Assembly: GCA_003558105.1 (NCBI GenBank)
Contig: PWMS01000108.1
Coordinates: 1-42,760, forward strand
Reading direction: 5' to 3'
Source of the DNA: Mollicutes bacterium
GTDB lineage: Bacteria > Bacillota_I > Bacilli_A > Izemoplasmatales > Izemoplasmataceae
Length of the DNA stretch: 42,760 nucleotides
The first letter of the stretch is position 1. Every line of letters begins with the position of its first letter. The position numbers and the translations under genes were made by a program. Below are positions 16,504-42,559 of this stretch, piece after piece. The notes beneath the pieces are model-generated. The model made no database searches and was not told the DNA's origin. It was given only the letters and a program-made list of their open reading frames with translations.

Positions 16504-17367
16504 ATGCCAAAAATAGGCGTTATCACCGACACCAATGCGTGTTTGGACTACTTTAAACATGACGACGACATCCCAATTTTACGCTCCATCATCCACCTTA
16601 ACGATGAGGCGTATTTAGACCACGTTGAACTAAAAGCCGAAGATTTCTACAAACGCTTAAAAGACGACCAATCGATATTCCCCAAAACCTCACAACCCCC
16701 CACCGTAAAAATGATAGAAACCTACGAAAAAATGAAAGAAAAAGGTTACACCGATCTTATCGTTGTGACAATTTCTTCGCATATGTCAGGGATATTTTCA
16801 GCGGCGAATGTCGCCGGTACGACTGTTGATGGCATCAATGTCCATGTATTTGATTCTAAAAGCGTTGCTTTTCCTCAAGCCAAGATGGCCTTAGAAGCCG
16901 CAGAAATGGCTAAAAAAGGCAAAAGCGTCGATGCGATTATCGAACACTTAGACTTTATCCGCAATAACAACCATCTTTATTTTGCGGTCGACACCCTTAC
17001 ATACCTTGTAAAAAACGGCCGTCTTTCTGGTGCCCAAGGCTTTTTGGGATCAATGTTAAAAATCAAGCCTTTGCTCCATATCTCAAAAGAAGGCAAAGTC
17101 GAACCAGTCGAAAAAATCCGTACCTTTAAAAAAGCGGTCGACCGCGTTATCGCGATGTATTTCGAAGAAACCCAAGATCTAAAGAACGTCGAACCTTTTA
17201 TTTGTCATGCCCATAACCCTGAGACTAAAAAATATATCGAAGCGGTCTTAAAAGAAAAAAATCCCAAACTTAAAACCATTTTTTCCATGCCGCTTACCCC
17301 AGCGGTTGGAGCCCATGGCGGCCCAGGGGCCATCGCCCTTGGATACTATATTAAAAAGTCAATTTAA
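16504..17367 (+). CDS. DegV family protein (fatty-acid-binding FakB-like), paralog 1
   Basis: GVITDTNACLDY, TSQPPTVKMIETYE, VTISSHMSGIFSAA, LVKNGRLSGAQGFLGSMLKIKPLL, TPAVGAHGGPGAIALGY. Confidence 0.92.
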   Translation: MPKIGVITDTNACLDYFKHDDDIPILRSIIHLNDEAYLDHVELKAEDFYKRLKDDQSIFPKTSQPPTVKMIETYEKMKEKGYTDLIVVTISSHMSGIFSAANVAGTTVDGINVHVFDSKSVAFPQAKMALEAAEMAKKGKSVDAIIEHLDFIRNNNHLYFAVDTLTYLVKNGRLSGAQGFLGSMLKIKPLLHISKEGKVEPVEKIRTFKKAVDRVIAMYFEETQDLKNVEPFICHAHNPETKKYIEAVLKEKNPKLKTIFSMPLTPAVGAHGGPGAIALGYYIKKSI

Positions 17368-34119: not shown

Positions 34120-34206
34120 AAGAAAAAGCTTTAAACCATAGGCTTTTTTGTTATAATGGAATGTGTGAGAAAGCGCTTTTATTTTGCAAAAATTTGGAGT
34201 GATAAT

Positions 34207-35025
34207 GTGTACAAAATCAAAGACAAAAAAGCCCTGAACAACGACGTGGATTGGATGCGTGTTCATGCCCCCTTAGTCGCACGTAATGCCAAACCTGGAC
34301 ATTTCATCATTTTACGCGTGGATGAGGATGGCGAAAGAATTCCTTTGACCATCGCGGATATCGATGGTGAAGATGTTGATATCATCTATCAAAAACTGGG
34401 GTATTCTACCCAACGTTTAGGCGATATGAATATCGGCGAGACGATCGCCGATTTTGTTGGTCCTTTGGGCCAAGCCGCCCACATCCGCGATAAAAAACAT
34501 GTCGTCGGTGTTGCTGGTGGTGTTGGGGCCGCCCCAATCTTACCACAATTAAGAGCCTACAAAGAACAAGGCACAAAAGTCACCTTGATTCTAGGGGCTA
34601 GAAACGAAGATTATCTCGTCTTAGAAGATACGTTTGAAAAACTTTGCGACCGTGTTATCATCACCACCGATAACGGGTCTAAAGGTCAAAAAGGCATGGT
34701 TACCGACGCCTTAGAACCTTTACTCAAAGACGATGAAAGCATCGATCACGTCATCGCTATTGGTCCTGTTATCATGATGAAATTCGTCGCTAAAATGGCT
34801 CAGGCCTACCAAAAAAGCATCGATGTATCGTTGAACCCGATTATGATCGATGGCACCGGTATGTGTGGTAACTGCCGTGTGGATATCGGTGGTAAAACCT
34901 ATTTTGCTTGCATCGATGGTCCTGATTTTGAAGGCCAAGAAGTGGATTATGATGGCTTGATGAAACGTCAAAACTATTATAAAGATGAAGAACATGTCTG
35001 TTATTTGAGGTTGAAAAATGACTAA
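34207..35025 (+). CDS. nfnA: NADH-dependent ferredoxin:NADP+ oxidoreductase alpha subunit (NfnA-like; FAD/NAD-binding)
   Basis: GTG at 34207 with RBS TTGGAGTG. RNAKPGHFIILR, GVAGGVGAAPILPQLRAY, MIDGTGMCGNCRVDIGGKTYFACIDGPDFEG. Confidence 0.82.
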   Translation: MYKIKDKKALNNDVDWMRVHAPLVARNAKPGHFIILRVDEDGERIPLTIADIDGEDVDIIYQKLGYSTQRLGDMNIGETIADFVGPLGQAAHIRDKKHVVGVAGGVGAAPILPQLRAYKEQGTKVTLILGARNEDYLVLEDTFEKLCDRVIITTDNGSKGQKGMVTDALEPLLKDDESIDHVIAIGPVIMMKFVAKMAQAYQKSIDVSLNPIMIDGTGMCGNCRVDIGGKTYFACIDGPDFEGQEVDYDGLMKRQNYYKDEEHVCYLRLKND

Positions 35026-36403
35026 CAAAACGAGTAGAACAAAAATGCCCGAACAAGCGGTAAATGAACGCATTGATAACTTTTTAGAAGTTGCTTTAGG
35101 CTATTCCATCGCAGAAGCCAAACAAGAAGCTTTGCGTTGTATCGATTGTAAAAACCCCCGTTGCGTACAAGCGTGCCCGGTTGGGGTTAAAATTCCAGAA
35201 TTTATCCAATACATTTTAGACGACGCTTTTGATGATGCCTTTGATATTCTATATGAAGACAATATCCTACCATCGATTTGCGGCCGTGTTTGTCCCCAAG
35301 AAAGTCAGTGTGAAGGGGCTTGTATTTTAGGCATCAAACAAGAACCCGTTGCGATTGGCGCCCTTGAGAGGTTCGTCGGTGATCATGGCATGAAAAACGA
35401 ACTGGCCGACACCAAAATCACCGATGAAAAAAAAGAAAAGATCGCCGTTGTCGGCAGCGGGCCTGCCGGACTTGCCAACGCGGCTTCCTTACGTAAAAGA
35501 GGCTATGACGTAACCGTTTTTGAAGCATTGCACGACTACGGCGGTGTCTTGACTTACGGTATTCCCTCCTTTAGACTCCCAAAAGATATCGTGAGAAAAG
35601 AGATACAAAACCTTGATGATATGGGCGTTAAATTCGTTAAAAATGCCATTATCGGTAAATCCATCACGATCGAACAACTCAAAGAAGATGGGTATGATGC
35701 TATCTTTGTCGGTAGTGGGGCTGGCTTGCCTAGTTCCTTGGGGATACCTGGTGAGAACTTAAACGCTGTTTATTATGCCAATGAATTTTTAACCCGTGTC
35801 AACTTGATGCGATCCAATGACTTTCCTAAGAGTGCCACCCCGATTAAACTCGGTGATAAAGTCGCGGTTGTTGGGGGCGGAAACGTCGCGATGGATGCGG
35901 CTAGAACGGCTAAGCGCATTGGCGCAAAAGAAGTCATGATTATCTACCGCCGCGACCAAGACAGTCTACCCGCACGCCTAGAAGAAATTCATCATGCCAT
36001 CGATGAAGGCATTGAGATGAATCTCCTTTATAACCCGGTTGAAGTCTTTGGGGAAAATCATGAAGTTAAACAAGTTAAATGCGAACGTATGAAACTCGGT
36101 GAGAAGGATAGTTCCGGACGCAGAAGACCCTTGCCAACGGGTGAATATGAAATCTTTGATATCGATGCTTTGATCGTTTCCATCGGTCAAAAACCCAACC
36201 CCATCATCAAACAAAACACGCTGGGCTTAAACACCCATGATTGGGGCGGTATCATCGTGGATGAAAGTTACCAAACCTCAGTTGAAGGGGTTTTCGCTGG
36301 CGGTGACGCCGTCACTGGGGCTGCGACCGTTATCTTAGCGATGGGCGCGGGTAAAGACGCCGCTCAAGAAATGCATGCGTATTTAGAGAAAAAAGCAAAA
36401 TAA
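35018..36403 (+). CDS. nfnB: NfnB / NADPH-dependent glutamate synthase small-subunit-like flavoprotein
   Basis: ALRCIDCKNPRCVQACPVGVKIPEFI, CGRVCPQESQCEGACILG, VVGSGPAGLANAASLRKRGYDVTVFEA, VAVVGGGNVAMDAARTAKRIGA, VFAGGDAVTGAATVILAMGAGKDAA. Overlaps nfnA by 8 nt. Confidence 0.9.
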   Translation: MTNKTSRTKMPEQAVNERIDNFLEVALGYSIAEAKQEALRCIDCKNPRCVQACPVGVKIPEFIQYILDDAFDDAFDILYEDNILPSICGRVCPQESQCEGACILGIKQEPVAIGALERFVGDHGMKNELADTKITDEKKEKIAVVGSGPAGLANAASLRKRGYDVTVFEALHDYGGVLTYGIPSFRLPKDIVRKEIQNLDDMGVKFVKNAIIGKSITIEQLKEDGYDAIFVGSGAGLPSSLGIPGENLNAVYYANEFLTRVNLMRSNDFPKSATPIKLGDKVAVVGGGNVAMDAARTAKRIGAKEVMIIYRRDQDSLPARLEEIHHAIDEGIEMNLLYNPVEVFGENHEVKQVKCERMKLGEKDSSGRRRPLPTGEYEIFDIDALIVSIGQKPNPIIKQNTLGLNTHDWGGIIVDESYQTSVEGVFAGGDAVTGAATVILAMGAGKDAAQEMHAYLEKKAK

Positions 36404-36517: not shown

Positions 36518-37375
36518 ATGAAAAAAATTGGTATTGTAGTTTGTGGTAACTCAGGCATCGATTATTTGAAACACGATTATGACATTCGGTTGATTAGATC
36601 TGCGCTGCATGTCGCAGAAGAGACTTATACGGACTTCATCGACATTAAAGCCGATGAATTTTACAAAATGATCAAAGAAAACCCCGAGTACCATCCCACC
36701 ACATCGCAAACCCCCACTGGCGTTATTTTAGAAACCTATGAACAGATGAAAAAAGATGGCTATGAAGAAATTTTAGCGATTACCCTTTCGTCTAAATTAA
36801 GTGGCACATATGAAGGTGCCTTGATGGCGGCCAATATGGTTGAAGGCATCAACGTGACCGTCTTTGATTCAAAAACCGTCGCGTATTCAGAAGCTTATAT
36901 GGCTTTAGAAGCAGCCCGTATGGTCAAAGAAGGCGCCGATATTCCTAAAATTATCGACCGTCTAAATGAGATTCGTGAGAACCAAGGCTTACTCATCAGC
37001 GTTGATACCTTAAAATATTTGGTGAAAAATGGCCGACTTTCCGGTGCGCAAGGTTTCTTAGGCTCATTGATGAAAATCAAACCAATGCTCAGTTTAAGTC
37101 GGGAAGGTAAAGTCGAACCAATCGAAAAGATTAGAACCCGCCAAAAAGCGTTAAAACGCATCGTTGAAAAGTTTACAGAAGAGATTTATGAAAAGCCCAT
37201 GGATGTCTTTATCATCCACGCCAACGCGGAAGACGTTTTAGACAATGTGAAAAAAGAACTACAAAAAGCTCTACCGGATGTGGGTAATATCAACACCTAT
37301 CTTTTGACCCCTGTGGTTGGAGCGCATGCTGGTCATGGCGCGCTTGCGATTGGTTGGATTAAGAAAAAACAGTGA
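36518..37375 (+). CDS. DegV family protein, paralog 2
   Basis: TTSQTPTGVILETYE, ITLSSKLSGTYEGA, LVKNGRLSGAQGFLGSLMKIKPML, TPVVGAHAGHGALAIGW. Confidence 0.92.
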   Translation: MKKIGIVVCGNSGIDYLKHDYDIRLIRSALHVAEETYTDFIDIKADEFYKMIKENPEYHPTTSQTPTGVILETYEQMKKDGYEEILAITLSSKLSGTYEGALMAANMVEGINVTVFDSKTVAYSEAYMALEAARMVKEGADIPKIIDRLNEIRENQGLLISVDTLKYLVKNGRLSGAQGFLGSLMKIKPMLSLSREGKVEPIEKIRTRQKALKRIVEKFTEEIYEKPMDVFIIHANAEDVLDNVKKELQKALPDVGNINTYLLTPVVGAHAGHGALAIGWIKKKQ

Positions 37376-38637: not shown

Positions 38638-39510
38638 ATGAAAAAAACCGCCGTGGTTGCTGTAAGCACAGGATGCTTGGATTATCTGGATGTACCCCAT
38701 GATAATCTTTTCATCATTCGCTGTAAGATTTTAATGCAAGACAAAACCTACAACGATTTTGTCGATTTAAAAGCCTCAACATTTTATGAAACCATCAAAA
38801 ACGATCCTAGCGTTGTGCCTTCAAGTTCGATGCCTGCTTTAGGTGAGATCACCGAGACTTTAAAAACGATTGAAAAGGCGGGTTATGAAAACGCCTTATT
38901 CATCACCATCTCAAAAGAACTCTCTGGGACCTATCAAACATGTATCATGGCTAAAAACGCTTATGAAGGCAATCTCAACATCGAGATACTAGACTCTAAA
39001 AATGCCGCTATCAGCGAAGGGTTTCTCTCTCTTGAGGCTTTGCGTATGATCGCTGAAGACAAGCCTTTAGAAGAGATTATTACGTATCTAGATAAACTTA
39101 AAACCGCACGCAAACAATACTTTATGGTTGATAATTTACGTTTGCTTGTGAAAAATGGTCGTTTGAGTGGCGCCAAAGGCTTGATGGGCAGACTACTTAA
39201 AATGAAACCAATCTTAGAAGTCAACGACGACGGCAAAATCGTCCCCTTCGAAAAAATCAGAACCCAACGTAAAGCTTTAGAACGCATGGTTGATATTGTC
39301 TTAGAAGATCTAAAGCATCTAGATAATTTCGTGATTACCTACGATACTTCAGACAATAAAGAAGGCTTTGAATATGTCAAACAACGCATCGATGAAGCTT
39401 ACCCCAAAAATGTGCATTACGCCGCGCCCATTACACCGGTCATCGGCGCACATACGGGACATGGCACCGTCGGGATTGCCTATTTCGATATCGATAAAGC
39501 CAAAAAGTAA
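38638..39510 (+). CDS. DegV family protein, paralog 3
   Basis: ITISKELSGTYQTC, LLVKNGRLSGAKGLMGRLLKMKPIL, TPVIGAHTGHGTVGIAYF. Confidence 0.9.
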   Translation: MKKTAVVAVSTGCLDYLDVPHDNLFIIRCKILMQDKTYNDFVDLKASTFYETIKNDPSVVPSSSMPALGEITETLKTIEKAGYENALFITISKELSGTYQTCIMAKNAYEGNLNIEILDSKNAAISEGFLSLEALRMIAEDKPLEEIITYLDKLKTARKQYFMVDNLRLLVKNGRLSGAKGLMGRLLKMKPILEVNDDGKIVPFEKIRTQRKALERMVDIVLEDLKHLDNFVITYDTSDNKEGFEYVKQRIDEAYPKNVHYAAPITPVIGAHTGHGTVGIAYFDIDKAKK

Positions 39511-39559: not shown

Positions 39560-40075
39560 ATGCAAACAAAAAAACTCGTCTTATTCAGTATTTTACTCTC
39601 CGTCAGCATCGTCTTAAACATCGTAGAACGGTTTGCGGTTGCTGGTTTTAGTGGTGTGCCCTTTTTTAGACTCGGGCTTGCTAATATCGTCATCCTGATT
39701 ATCTTATATGTCTACGGTAGTAAAGATGCTTTTACCATGCTTATATTAAGAATATTTGTAGTCGGTCTTTTGACGGGCAACCTTGGTGCGCCCACCTTTT
39801 GGCTATCCTTATCTGGTGGCCTTATCGCTTTTTTACTGATGATGCTTTTCAAACAACTACCCGGCTTTACCATCATTAGCGTCTCTCTTATGGGCGCGAT
39901 TGGCCATGCTTTTGGTCAAATATTAATGGCGATTATCATCTTGAGTACCGTCGAAAACATCTATTTATTTCCCTTGCTGATGGTCCTCAGTGTGCCCACC
40001 GGCATATTCACCGGCATGGTCGCAAAAAAACTGATGCGCATCTTAAGCCAACAACTATTCTTAGAACAATATTAA
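39560..40075 (+). CDS. Gx transporter / heptaprenyl diphosphate synthase component I family membrane protein
   Basis: KKLVLFSILLSVSIVLNIVERF...PFFRLGLANIVILIILYVYGSKDAFTMLILRIFVVGLLTGNLGAPTFWLSLSGGLIAFLLM is the Gx/HepI-like pattern. Confidence 0.85.
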   Translation: MQTKKLVLFSILLSVSIVLNIVERFAVAGFSGVPFFRLGLANIVILIILYVYGSKDAFTMLILRIFVVGLLTGNLGAPTFWLSLSGGLIAFLLMMLFKQLPGFTIISVSLMGAIGHAFGQILMAIIILSTVENIYLFPLLMVLSVPTGIFTGMVAKKLMRILSQQLFLEQY

Positions 40076-40108
40076 AAAACGAAATCCCTTGGGATTTCGT
40101 TTTATTTT
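40076..40108. terminator. bidirectional terminator between Gx gene and apbE-like gene
   Basis: AAAACGAAATCCC / TT / GGGATTTCGTTTT, followed by T-rich sequence. Confidence 0.8.
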
Positions 40109-41376
40109 TACCTTTTTTTACGACCATATAAGAAGTAGTATAAGCCAGTAGAAGAGGCAAACAATGTCAAGATGGCCAAAAGCACAACCGTCATAAATAC
40201 GTCACGACCCTCATCACAATCAAAGTCTAAAGTGAAGTGTCTTAAGTATTGTGCTTCGAAAGCCTCACTCATCACCGGCGCTACACAACTATCCTCAAAC
40301 CATATCGCCTCTAAATCATCGCGCGCATTAACATAATCAAGCCCTTCTTCCAAAGGCATAATGAAGACGGCGGTAACCAAGATATCGCCAAAAGCGCCAT
40401 CCTCAGATACCATTGTGACCGCTTTATGGTGATCGGTCGGATAAAGCGTATAAGGATTGATCAAATGGTGATACTTGCGTCCATCGACTTCATAGTAGCG
40501 ATCATAATCACCACTTGTGGTTGCGTTTTTCCCACTTTCCATCTTGATCGTGGCATAGGTGTTTTCTAGGCCAAAAGGATTTTCTGGGTTGGTTATACCA
40601 ATATAGAAGAGATCATTATCGCGATAAGGATGATCGCCATACACCTCAACATTGGAGGTGCCAGCGTTGAGGATAAAGGCTTCAATGCGCTCATCATCCT
40701 TTAATACCTCGCCCAACATCTTTGCGCCATAGCCTTTGGCCATACCGCCAAGATCAAGACGCATCCCCGCTTCGATCATCACTTGATAATTGTCTTTATC
40801 TAAATGAAGCCCTTCAATCCCAACATACGCGTTGGCTGCATCTAAGGTACTTTGTTCGGGGATGGTGCAGTATTGATCTTTTTCTTGTTCGTATATTTCA
40901 TGGGAATTTTCTTCACCCCGCAAAGACTCTTGCCAACCAAGACAACGTTCCCGATGTTCATCCCATACATCGATAACAGGCCCTAAAGTAATATCAAAAT
41001 ACCCGTCTGTAATATCGTAGTATTCAATCGATAGTTCAAGCATATCAAAAAGCAAGGGGTCTACCGTATGGTATTCACCTGGATTATCGTTGATGGTCTT
41101 AACATTAACAAGGCCTTCATAGGCCACAAACCATGTCGATAAACGGTGCGTTTTTTCCAGTATTTCATGAAGTTCATTCGTTAAATCTTCAAGGTCTTCG
41201 CCTTCTTCATGAAACATCCGCATCGCAATCGTCGTATCGTAATAGTTGCTCGTGGTAAAATCTGTGTAAGCGACACTTGATTCGGCATCATCATCAGAAA
41301 AGAAGTATAGAGTGCCAAGGCCAACAATCACAAGCAAACCTAAAATAGCTATTGTGTATTTATTCACATATTTCAT
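40108..41376 (-). CDS. apbE: ApbE family FAD:protein FMN transferase with N- and C-terminal TM segments
   Basis: MRLDLGGMAKGYGAKML, LNAGTSNVEVYG, ATTSGDYDRYYEVDGRKYHHLINPYTLYPTDH. C-terminal VFMTVVLLAILTLFASSTGLYYFLYGRKKR. Start at 41376 (AGGTG RBS) rather than 41394. Confidence 0.92.
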   Translation of the reverse strand: MKYVNKYTIAILGLLVIVGLGTLYFFSDDDAESSVAYTDFTTSNYYDTTIAMRMFHEEGEDLEDLTNELHEILEKTHRLSTWFVAYEGLVNVKTINDNPGEYHTVDPLLFDMLELSIEYYDITDGYFDITLGPVIDVWDEHRERCLGWQESLRGEENSHEIYEQEKDQYCTIPEQSTLDAANAYVGIEGLHLDKDNYQVMIEAGMRLDLGGMAKGYGAKMLGEVLKDDERIEAFILNAGTSNVEVYGDHPYRDNDLFYIGITNPENPFGLENTYATIKMESGKNATTSGDYDRYYEVDGRKYHHLINPYTLYPTDHHKAVTMVSEDGAFGDILVTAVFIMPLEEGLDYVNARDDLEAIWFEDSCVAPVMSEAFEAQYLRHFTLDFDCDEGRDVFMTVVLLAILTLFASSTGLYYFLYGRKKR

Positions 41377-41421
41377 TTTAATCACCTGAATCATTATAAC
41401 ATAAGATATTAAAAATCAAAG

Positions 41422-41450
41422 AAAAAAAGAGACGTCCGAAGACGTCTCTT
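41422..41450 (-). terminator. terminator of the FMN-lipoprotein gene (UUCG tetraloop)
   Basis: On the minus strand: AAGAGACGTC-TTCG-GACGTCTCTT followed by a T-run. Confidence 0.85.
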
Positions 41451-41466
41451 ACAAATGTCTAATCAC

Positions 41467-42474
41467 TTAGTCCAATGCGTTTTGAACTGCTTCAATGTAG
41501 CTAGTAACGGTAACTGTTACACCAGCGATTACATCGTCGCCTTCAAAGTCGCCATCTTCGTTAATGTCATAGCTAGGAACGCCTTGATTTTCAACGATAT
41601 CATCGGCAAGCATTTGTACTTGGGCAACCCACATGATTTCGCCTTCAACTTCACAATCTTCTACAGGTTCACCTGGCCACATATTATAGCCGCAACCATG
41701 GTCTAAAGACATCTTAGTTGTTGCAATACCAGATCTTTCATTACCAAAATGTACCCAATCAACAAGGGCTTCATCAGAAGCTTTCATGTAGATCGTGTCG
41801 ATTCCAATATGCTCAATGTGACCATCGGCATTAACCGCCACCACAGCAATGGTGTTTTGATGACCATCGGTATAACCAAAGTTAATACCAGGTTCATAAT
41901 CGCCTGTACCACTAAATGATGGAACATCGAAGTCTGCAGGACTTTCGTCTTCACCGAGTTTTGCAATCTCAAGTGCATTTTCAACCGCTTCAATGTAGCT
42001 AGTAACGGTAATGGTAACACCAGCGATTACATCGTCGCCTTCAAAGTCGCCATCTTCGTTAATGTCATAAGAAGGGACGCCTTGATTTTCAATGATGTCT
42101 TCAGCGAGCATGCGAACTTGGTCAACCCACATAATTTCGCCTTCAACTTCACAATCTTCTACAGGTTGTCCAGGCCACATATTATAGCCGCAACCATGGT
42201 CTAAAGACATCTTAGTTGTTACATAACCCGTATTCTCGCTACCACGAGCTTCCCAGTTTAATGGGCCATCATCATCGGTTTTAAGATAAACAGAATCGAT
42301 GAAGATATCATCAATATAGCCATCTGCATCCACGTAAACATACGCATACGTATTTTGATGACCGTCTGTATAACCAAGATGTAATCCTGGTTTGTACTCA
42401 CCATAGTCTTTACCACATGCTGCAAGGGTGACCATGACGATTAAAGAAAGGGACACAAATAAAACTTTTTTCAT
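41467..42474 (-). CDS. PplA-like lipoprotein with two tandem FMN-binding domains
   Basis: Signal peptide and lipobox LAAC at Cys20. Two ~143-aa repeats, each with TTKxSL..YNM...(I/V)xW.xQvxMLAxDI and D-V-I-A-G-V-T near the C-terminus. Confidence 0.88.
   Translation of the reverse strand: MKKVLFVSLSLIVMVTLAACGKDYGEYKPGLHLGYTDGHQNTYAYVYVDADGYIDDIFIDSVYLKTDDDGPLNWEARGSENTGYVTTKMSLDHGCGYNMWPGQPVEDCEVEGEIMWVDQVRMLAEDIIENQGVPSYDINEDGDFEGDDVIAGVTITVTSYIEAVENALEIAKLGEDESPADFDVPSFSGTGDYEPGINFGYTDGHQNTIAVVAVNADGHIEHIGIDTIYMKASDEALVDWVHFGNERSGIATTKMSLDHGCGYNMWPGEPVEDCEVEGEIMWVAQVQMLADDIVENQGVPSYDINEDGDFEGDDVIAGVTVTVTSYIEAVQNALD
41470..41898 (-). repeat. FMN-binding domain repeat 2 (aa 193-335)
   Basis: Near-identical to repeat 1 at offset 498 nt (166 aa), including a shared ~50-nt identical stretch over the EF-hand-like/flavinylation region. 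Confidence 0.9.
41968..42396 (-). repeat. FMN-binding domain repeat 1 (aa 27-169)
   Basis: See repeat 2. Confidence 0.9.
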
Positions 42475-42530: not shown

Positions 42531-42559
42531 ATTATAGATTCTCTTAAACGCTTTGTCAA
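42531..42559 (-). promoter_or_regulatory. perfect-consensus sigma-A promoter of the FMN-lipoprotein gene
   Basis: On the minus strand: TTGACA (42559-42554), exactly 17-nt spacer, TATAAT (42536-42531). RBS AGGAGGCG at 42488-42481. Confidence 0.85.

What the first reader, a model, noticed from the sequence alone, without database searches (positions are those of the whole stretch)
41467..42474. Surface FMN lipoprotein with two near-identical domains and a non-canonical flavinylation motif
Sequence: a lipobox protein carries two ~143-aa FMN-binding repeats, both ending in D-V-I-A-G-V-T-[IV]-T. Established: ApbE attaches FMN to the Thr/Ser of a Dxx[S/T]GA[S/T] motif, and Listeria PplA is a two-FMN-domain lipoprotein in flavin-based extracellular electron transfer. 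Here the S/T-G-A core is A-G-V in both copies, next to its own ApbE. This suggests either a variant ApbE/target pair or altered flavinylation.
Basis: partly seen in the sequence, partly recalled or inferred. Interest (0 to 1): 0.72.

Follow-up and report, generated by a model that had tools for sequence, protein, structure and literature searches.

The report
Surface two-flavin lipoprotein beside flavin transferase
This is a membrane-anchored surface protein that probably carries two covalently attached flavins and passes electrons outward; its unusual flavin-attachment motif proves to be common in its own subfamily, so the finding is real but mostly ordinary.

Summary
Window 41467-42474 (-) encodes a 335-aa lipobox protein with two FMN_bind domains, each with DVIAGVT, next to apbE. 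The domains are 72% identical overall (89% in the C-terminal half, 50% in the N-terminal half). The motif is not an oddity of this protein: in 182 related domains from its class, AGVT is the commonest core (65), V stands at the canonical A position in 143, position -3 is A, S or T, and the acceptor is T or S in all 182. The features fit the FMN-bind2 subtype described in 2024. The lipoprotein sits with apbE, eetB (FAD-export subunit) and the start of a probable eetA; lipoprotein-apbE-eetB recurs across its family and in two other families. The genome has one detected ApbE, catalytic residues intact, and RnfG with a canonical TGAT site, so a dedicated variant ApbE/target pair is unlikely. A published A-to-V substitution still gave about 50% flavinylation. 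Best reading: an ordinary ApbE flavinylates T154 and T320, and the lipoprotein carries electrons outward, probably from Rnf, because no UbiA was found for a Listeria-type quinone route. Covalent flavin on DxxAGVT is untested in the papers I could read.

The parts
41467..42474 (-). two-domain FMN-bind2 lipoprotein CDS (335 aa)
   Evidence: ORF and translation; Pfam FMN_bind 9.1e-8
42415..42426 (-). lipobox LAAC (residues 17-20, Cys20)
   Evidence: direct reading of P0001; C20 invariant in a 40-sequence alignment
41959..42402 (-). FMN-bind2 domain 1
   Evidence: profile A2 match 229 bits
42013..42033 (-). flavinylation-motif equivalent 1, DVIAGVT (T154 = predicted acceptor)
   Evidence: profile-profile register DVIAGVT over DTISGAT
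41470..41904 (-). FMN-bind2 domain 2
   Evidence: profile A2 match 215 bits
41515..41535 (-). flavinylation-motif equivalent 2, DVIAGVT (T320 = predicted acceptor)
   Evidence: direct reading, exact repeat
42531..42559 (-). sigma-70-type promoter TTGACA-17-TATAAT (12/12) upstream of the lipoprotein
   Evidence: consensus scan; suggests a strongly expressed carrier, not shown
41427..41450 (-). intrinsic-terminator-like hairpin between lipoprotein and apbE
   Evidence: scan
40108..41376 (-). apbE, FAD:protein FMN transferase (alternative start at 41394)
   Evidence: PF02424 6.3e-56; aligns to FmnB and T. maritima ApbE structures with catalytic residues kept
40076..40103 (.). bidirectional terminator-like hairpin between eetB and apbE
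   Evidence: scan
39560..40075 (+). eetB homologue (PF07456), substrate subunit of the ECF-type FAD exporter
   Evidence: PF07456 1.9e-33; family assigned to EetB in PMC9973259
42675..42760 (+). start of probable eetA (NusG_II) gene, cut by the contig end
   Evidence: N-terminus MKKNDLILIV.. aligns to a NusG_II protein at the same place in L231; no Pfam match on the fragment itself

Best explanation
The protein is a surface-anchored, two-domain FMN-bind2 lipoprotein. The EetB-type ECF transporter exports FAD. The adjacent, ordinary ApbE transfers FMN from it onto T154 and T320 in the relaxed motif Dxx[A/S/T]GV[T/S]. The doubly flavinylated lipoprotein then relays electrons across the envelope, most likely from the Rnf complex, to an external acceptor. 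Shown here: domains, motif, gene neighbourhood, conserved acceptor hydroxyl, intact ApbE residues, a single detected ApbE alongside canonical RnfG, absence of a UbiA match. Inferred: covalent attachment, direction of electron flow, Rnf as donor, an external acceptor.
For: (1) The acceptor is T or S in 182/182 aligned domains while neighbouring positions vary (A/S/T at -3; V/C/A at -1): this is what selection for a hydroxyl acceptor predicts. (2) Profile-profile comparison puts AGVT exactly over SGAT of FMN-bind1 proteins (prob 97%, E 1.7e-10), and the profile finds the solved protein 2KZX (7.6e-14) with DAISGATI in register. (3) apbE occurs in 91 of 98 genomes with such domains and in 133 of 299 without; the lipoprotein-apbE-eetB triad recurs across its family (f1) and in families f13 and f20, and lipoprotein-apbE adjacency also in f10, f14 and f15. 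PF07456 is EetB, the FAD-export subunit. (4) Residues T256, S257, R262, H273, D301 and T305 of Listeria FmnB are conserved in the window ApbE. (5) A-to-V in the motif of a K. pneumoniae target still gave about 50% flavinylation (PMC12052999 sec. 8). (6) Rnf: two RnfG/RnfD sets in this genome; in G082 the lipoprotein, eetA, Rnf, apbE and eetB lie in one 18-kb stretch, and in G347/G401 an RnfD gene lies a few kb from the cluster. No UbiA.
Against: No experiment shows covalent FMN on any AGVT site. The A-to-V result was a single substitution in a fumarate reductase; A plus V together was not reported. Predicted structures (pLDDT 87 for the whole protein, 79 for one domain) did not retrieve any FMN_bind structure from the PDB with Foldseek. 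Every genome checked that lacks other FMN_bind matches still has RnfD or is incomplete, so ApbE could be kept for Rnf alone. The genome is 83% complete, so missing genes may be assembly gaps.
Confidence: 0.8

Rival explanations
1. Variant ApbE/target pair: the adjacent ApbE has altered specificity for A-G-V-T and is dedicated to this lipoprotein.
For: Adjacent and co-conserved genes; V at -1 is near-constant in the subfamily (143/182).
Against: Only one ApbE is detected in this genome, which also has RnfG with TGAT. Many relatives with exactly one ApbE carry both GAT-type and V/C-type targets, for example G057, G077, G082, G111, G121, G162, G273, G338. Catalytic residues are unremarkable. The -3 position varies A/S/G within the genus.
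Confidence: 0.07
2. Degenerate domain: the FMN-bind2 domains hold flavin non-covalently or have lost flavin and serve a structural role.
For: Departure from the textbook motif at two of seven positions; Foldseek finds no FMN_bind structure.
Against: Acceptor T/S in 182/182 domains, including T/S exchanges; strong linkage to apbE and eetB; both domains keep the motif.
Confidence: 0.1
3. A true PplA-type EET carrier fed by Ndh2 and demethylmenaquinone, as in Listeria.
For: Same gene kinds: lipoprotein, apbE, eetB, probable eetA; two flavin sites as in PplA.
Against: No UbiA prenyltransferase in the genome although all 14 control genomes ring; different domain subtype and motif (Listeria homologues have SGAT, PMC7074142); Thr spacing 166 versus 122 residues in PplA (T143/T265, PMC8906456); Rnf genes occur in related clusters.
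Confidence: 0.12

Closest known systems
FMN-bind2 domain proteins (PMC11334425; two-domain Erysipelotrichaceae protein)
   Same: About 145-160 aa domain with insertions, often in pairs, apbE-associated
   Different: The paper's text does not discuss the AGVT motif or report a flavinylation assay on FMN-bind2; I could not compare with its example sequence
Listeria PplA / FmnB / EetA / EetB extracellular electron transfer locus
   Same: Surface lipoprotein with two FMN sites, ApbE, FAD-export subunit EetB, probable EetA
   Different: PplA homologues have SGAT; no UbiA found here; gene order and domain subtype differ
PDB 2KZX, uncharacterised FMN_bind-like protein
   Same: Closest solved relative by sequence profile (E 7.6e-14), with the shared Y-x-M ... 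W-x-E-Q region and motif position
   Different: Has canonical DAISGAT; single domain
RnfG/NqrC
   Same: FMN_bind domain flavinylated on Thr by ApbE; two RnfG-type genes in this genome
   Different: FMN-bind1-like, canonical TGAT/STGAT, membrane complex subunit

Membership tests
FMN_bind (PF04205) | Match to the family profile above the curated cut-off | tested here: met
   33.1 bits against 22, two stretches; hhalign to FMN-bind1 E 1.7e-10
FMN_bind (PF04205) | Fold shared with solved FMN_bind structures | tested here: inconclusive
   Foldseek against the PDB gave no match for the whole protein (pLDDT 87) or one domain (pLDDT 79); sequence profile matches 2KZX
FMN-bind2 subtype | Longer domain with insertions relative to FMN-bind1, often in even copy number | tested here: met
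   About 145-aa domains, two copies, with an insertion relative to FMN-bind1 in the profile alignment; definition from PMC11334425
ApbE flavinylation substrate | Motif D-x-x-[S/T]-G-A-[S/T] | tested here: not met
   DVIAGVT in both domains; D, G and the final T are kept, S/T is A and A is V
ApbE flavinylation substrate | Acceptor Thr/Ser conserved | tested here: met
   182/182 T or S
ApbE flavinylation substrate | Covalent FMN | not testable with these tools
   Needs co-expression and MS
PplA | Lipoprotein with two FMN sites encoded with FmnB, EetA, EetB | tested here: met
   eetA start probable only
PplA | Canonical SGAT motifs and Ndh2/DMK electron supply | tested here: not met
   AGVT motifs; no UbiA in the 83%-complete genome
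ApbE (PF02424) | Family match and catalytic Ser/His/Asp and metal-site residues | tested here: met
   6.3e-56; alignment to FmnB 7ESA/7F39

The most novel reading that the evidence does not exclude
These lipoproteins are the terminal carriers of a quinone-independent, Rnf-driven extracellular electron export in Mollicutes-like sediment bacteria, using FMN-bind2 domains whose relaxed Dxx[A/S/T]G[V/C][T/S] motif marks an unrecognised main class of ApbE targets.
Probability: 0.3. Interest if true: 0.5.

Novelty: new member of a known kind. Interest (0 to 1): 0.3.

Why it matters
Searches for flavinylated proteins rely on the [S/T]GA[S/T] core. In this subfamily that core is the exception: most domains read AGV[T/S], SGV[T/S] or xGCT. 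If these are flavinylated, the ApbE target set in Bacilli-like bacteria is undercounted and the rule should be relaxed to D-x-x-[A/S/T]-G-[A/V/C]-[T/S]. The locus also extends FAD export plus surface flavoprotein systems to Mollicutes-like bacteria with no detected quinone prenyltransferase.

Tried and rejected
Foldseek of two predicted models against the PDB: no FMN_bind match; kept as a failed test. phmmer of the single protein against the PDB: nothing relevant; only profiles work. 'ApbE with no other substrate' test: G247, G347 and G074 lack other FMN_bind matches, but G247 and G347 have RnfD and G074 is 73% complete, so inconclusive. Dedicated ApbE/target pair: rejected on single-ApbE genomes with both target types. 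Two identical motifs as independent evidence: rejected because the C-halves look homogenised. The original mutagenesis paper (PMID 31834358) is not held; I rely on the review's account. My memory that replacing the motif serine had only a minor effect is unverified.

Full report
What is there. The reverse strand of window 41467-42474 encodes a 335-aa lipoprotein (lipobox LAAC, Cys20) with two FMN_bind domains (PF04205, 9.1e-8). Each ends in GDDVIAGVT[IV]TVTSYIEAV. The domains are 72% identical; the C-terminal halves are 89% identical and the N-terminal halves 50%. Against five close relatives the window's C-halves match at 51-80% and its N-halves at 45-87%. This pattern indicates gene conversion between the C-halves, so the identical motif in both copies is one observation rather than two. 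A consensus-perfect sigma-70 promoter lies upstream of the gene and a strong hairpin separates it from apbE, which suggests an abundant, separately transcribed carrier; this is inference from consensus matches.

Neighbourhood. Downstream on the same strand is apbE (PF02424, 6.3e-56). Beyond it, convergent, is a PF07456 gene (1.9e-33). PF07456 is the family of EetB, the substrate-binding subunit of the FAD-exporting ECF transporter in Listeria (PMC9973259). On the other side, divergent from the lipoprotein and cut by the contig end at 42760, an ORF starts MKKNDLILIVTVLLIGLSSLLTVQIIQA. It resembles the N-terminus of a NusG_II protein at the equivalent place in a relative (PF07009 1e-14 for that relative; 41% identity over 27 residues), so it is probably eetA. 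EetA and EetB genes are often co-located, and eetB with apbE.

Organism. The assembly is unnamed (1.56 Mb, 83% complete). I take these to be soda-lake sediment genomes of the Izemoplasma-like group; that is an inference.

Is the motif special? I aligned the domain (13 sequences) and searched 397 genomes of the class and 396 of the phylum. All listed matches lay in the class. From the fetched loci, 182 distinct domains have an ungapped motif. The acceptor position is T in 137 and S in 45, never anything else. The position before it is V in 143, C in 21, A in 8. The position three before it is A in 105, S in 38, T in 30. The first D is kept in 150 and G in 151. AGVT is the commonest core (65). 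After removing redundancy at 70% identity (134 domains) the picture is the same (48 AGVT; T/S 100%). FMN-bind1 and RnfG proteins from the same genomes mostly have GAT, including some AGAT, IGAT and VGAT. Within the window's own genus the core is AGVT, AGVS, SGVT or GGVT. One caution: the profile was seeded with T/S-containing sequences, although a single column should not decide whether a domain is found.

Which subfamily? The larger domain (about 145 aa against about 120), the insertion and the even copy number fit the FMN-bind2 subtype described in 2024 (PMC11334425). Profile-profile comparison against FMN-bind1 sequences gives 97% probability, E 1.7e-10, with DVIAGVT over DTISGAT. A profile of 15 domains finds the solved protein 2KZX at 7.6e-14 with DAISGATI in register. 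Predicted structures were reasonably confident (pLDDT 87 and 79), but Foldseek did not retrieve FMN_bind structures. I cannot explain this beyond the insertions and possible model error, and I count it as a failed fold test.

Is the ApbE special? Only one ApbE was found in the genome. The genome also has RnfG with DAITGATRTS and a second RnfG with STGAT and VGAT sites, so this ApbE presumably serves canonical targets too. The FmnB residues T256, S257, R262, H273, D301 and T305 are conserved, with E261 replaced by D (numbering from PMC8906456). Many relatives have exactly one ApbE and both target types. A dedicated variant pair is unlikely.

Is it flavinylated? Indirect evidence says yes. The acceptor hydroxyl is invariant. 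apbE is present in 91 of 98 genomes with the domain and 133 of 299 without (Fisher p about 3e-19, relatedness ignored; most of the seven exceptions are incomplete genomes). The lipoprotein-apbE-eetB triad recurs across the window's family and in two other families of the class (f13, f20), and lipoprotein-apbE adjacency in three more (f10, f14, f15). A review of mutagenesis reports that A-to-V in the motif of a K. pneumoniae target reduced flavinylation only to about 50% and that changing the first D had minor effects (PMC12052999). No paper I could read tests AGVT directly.

What does it do? By analogy with PplA it should carry electrons at the cell surface. The donor probably differs from Listeria: no UbiA prenyltransferase was found, although all 14 control genomes had one, while two Rnf-type sets are present. 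In genome G082 an 18-kb stretch holds eetB, apbE, RnfC, RnfD, a 641-aa protein with FMN_bind domains, two Rnf-Nqr membrane subunits, the FMN-bind2 lipoprotein and a NusG_II gene. In G347 and G401 an RnfD gene lies close to the cluster. I therefore favour Rnf as the donor. The acceptor is unknown.

Verdict. A real feature that belongs to a known kind: an FMN-bind2 lipoprotein in an EetAB-ApbE cassette. The useful residue is that the accepted ApbE motif is too narrow for this subfamily, which is testable in one co-expression experiment.

Noticed in passing
L024 / L235:14796-15665 (-), L025, L028 (other genera of the same family): Lipoproteins that fuse one or two rhodanese domains (CGSGTRA loop) to FMN-bind2 domains; in G082 the gene lies in an Rnf-eetA-apbE-eetB stretch. 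A section heading of PMC8397711 says thiosulfate promotes growth of the cultured Izemoplasma strain, so a flavin-linked surface sulfurtransferase is conceivable.
   Followed up: partly
window 41470-42402: The C-terminal halves of the two domains are nearly identical in DNA while the N-terminal halves have diverged, a sign of intragenic gene conversion.
   Followed up: yes
L043:1040-5988 (G036 contig C8) and L015 (G035 contig C5): A same-genus genome has two tandem two-domain FMN-bind2 lipoproteins followed by apbE and eetB; another has at least three tandem domains and an in-frame TAG right after an AGVT motif.
   Followed up: partly
L002:1222-2427 (own genome, contig C53): An RnfG-like protein with two FMN_bind-like regions and motifs DTSTGAT and DVTVGAT, so a non-S/T residue at -3 occurs in this genome's Rnf as well.
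   Followed up: no
window 34156-36403 (+): A split pair resembling the sulfide/dihydroorotate dehydrogenase-like FAD/NAD subunit plus a GltA-like subunit (PRK12778 as two genes), possibly an NfnAB/SudAB-type electron-transfer enzyme.
   Followed up: no
window 16504-17367, 36518-37375, 38638-39510 (+): Three DegV-like (fatty-acid-binding) genes in one window; two were confirmed by Pfam, the first is by resemblance only.
   Followed up: no
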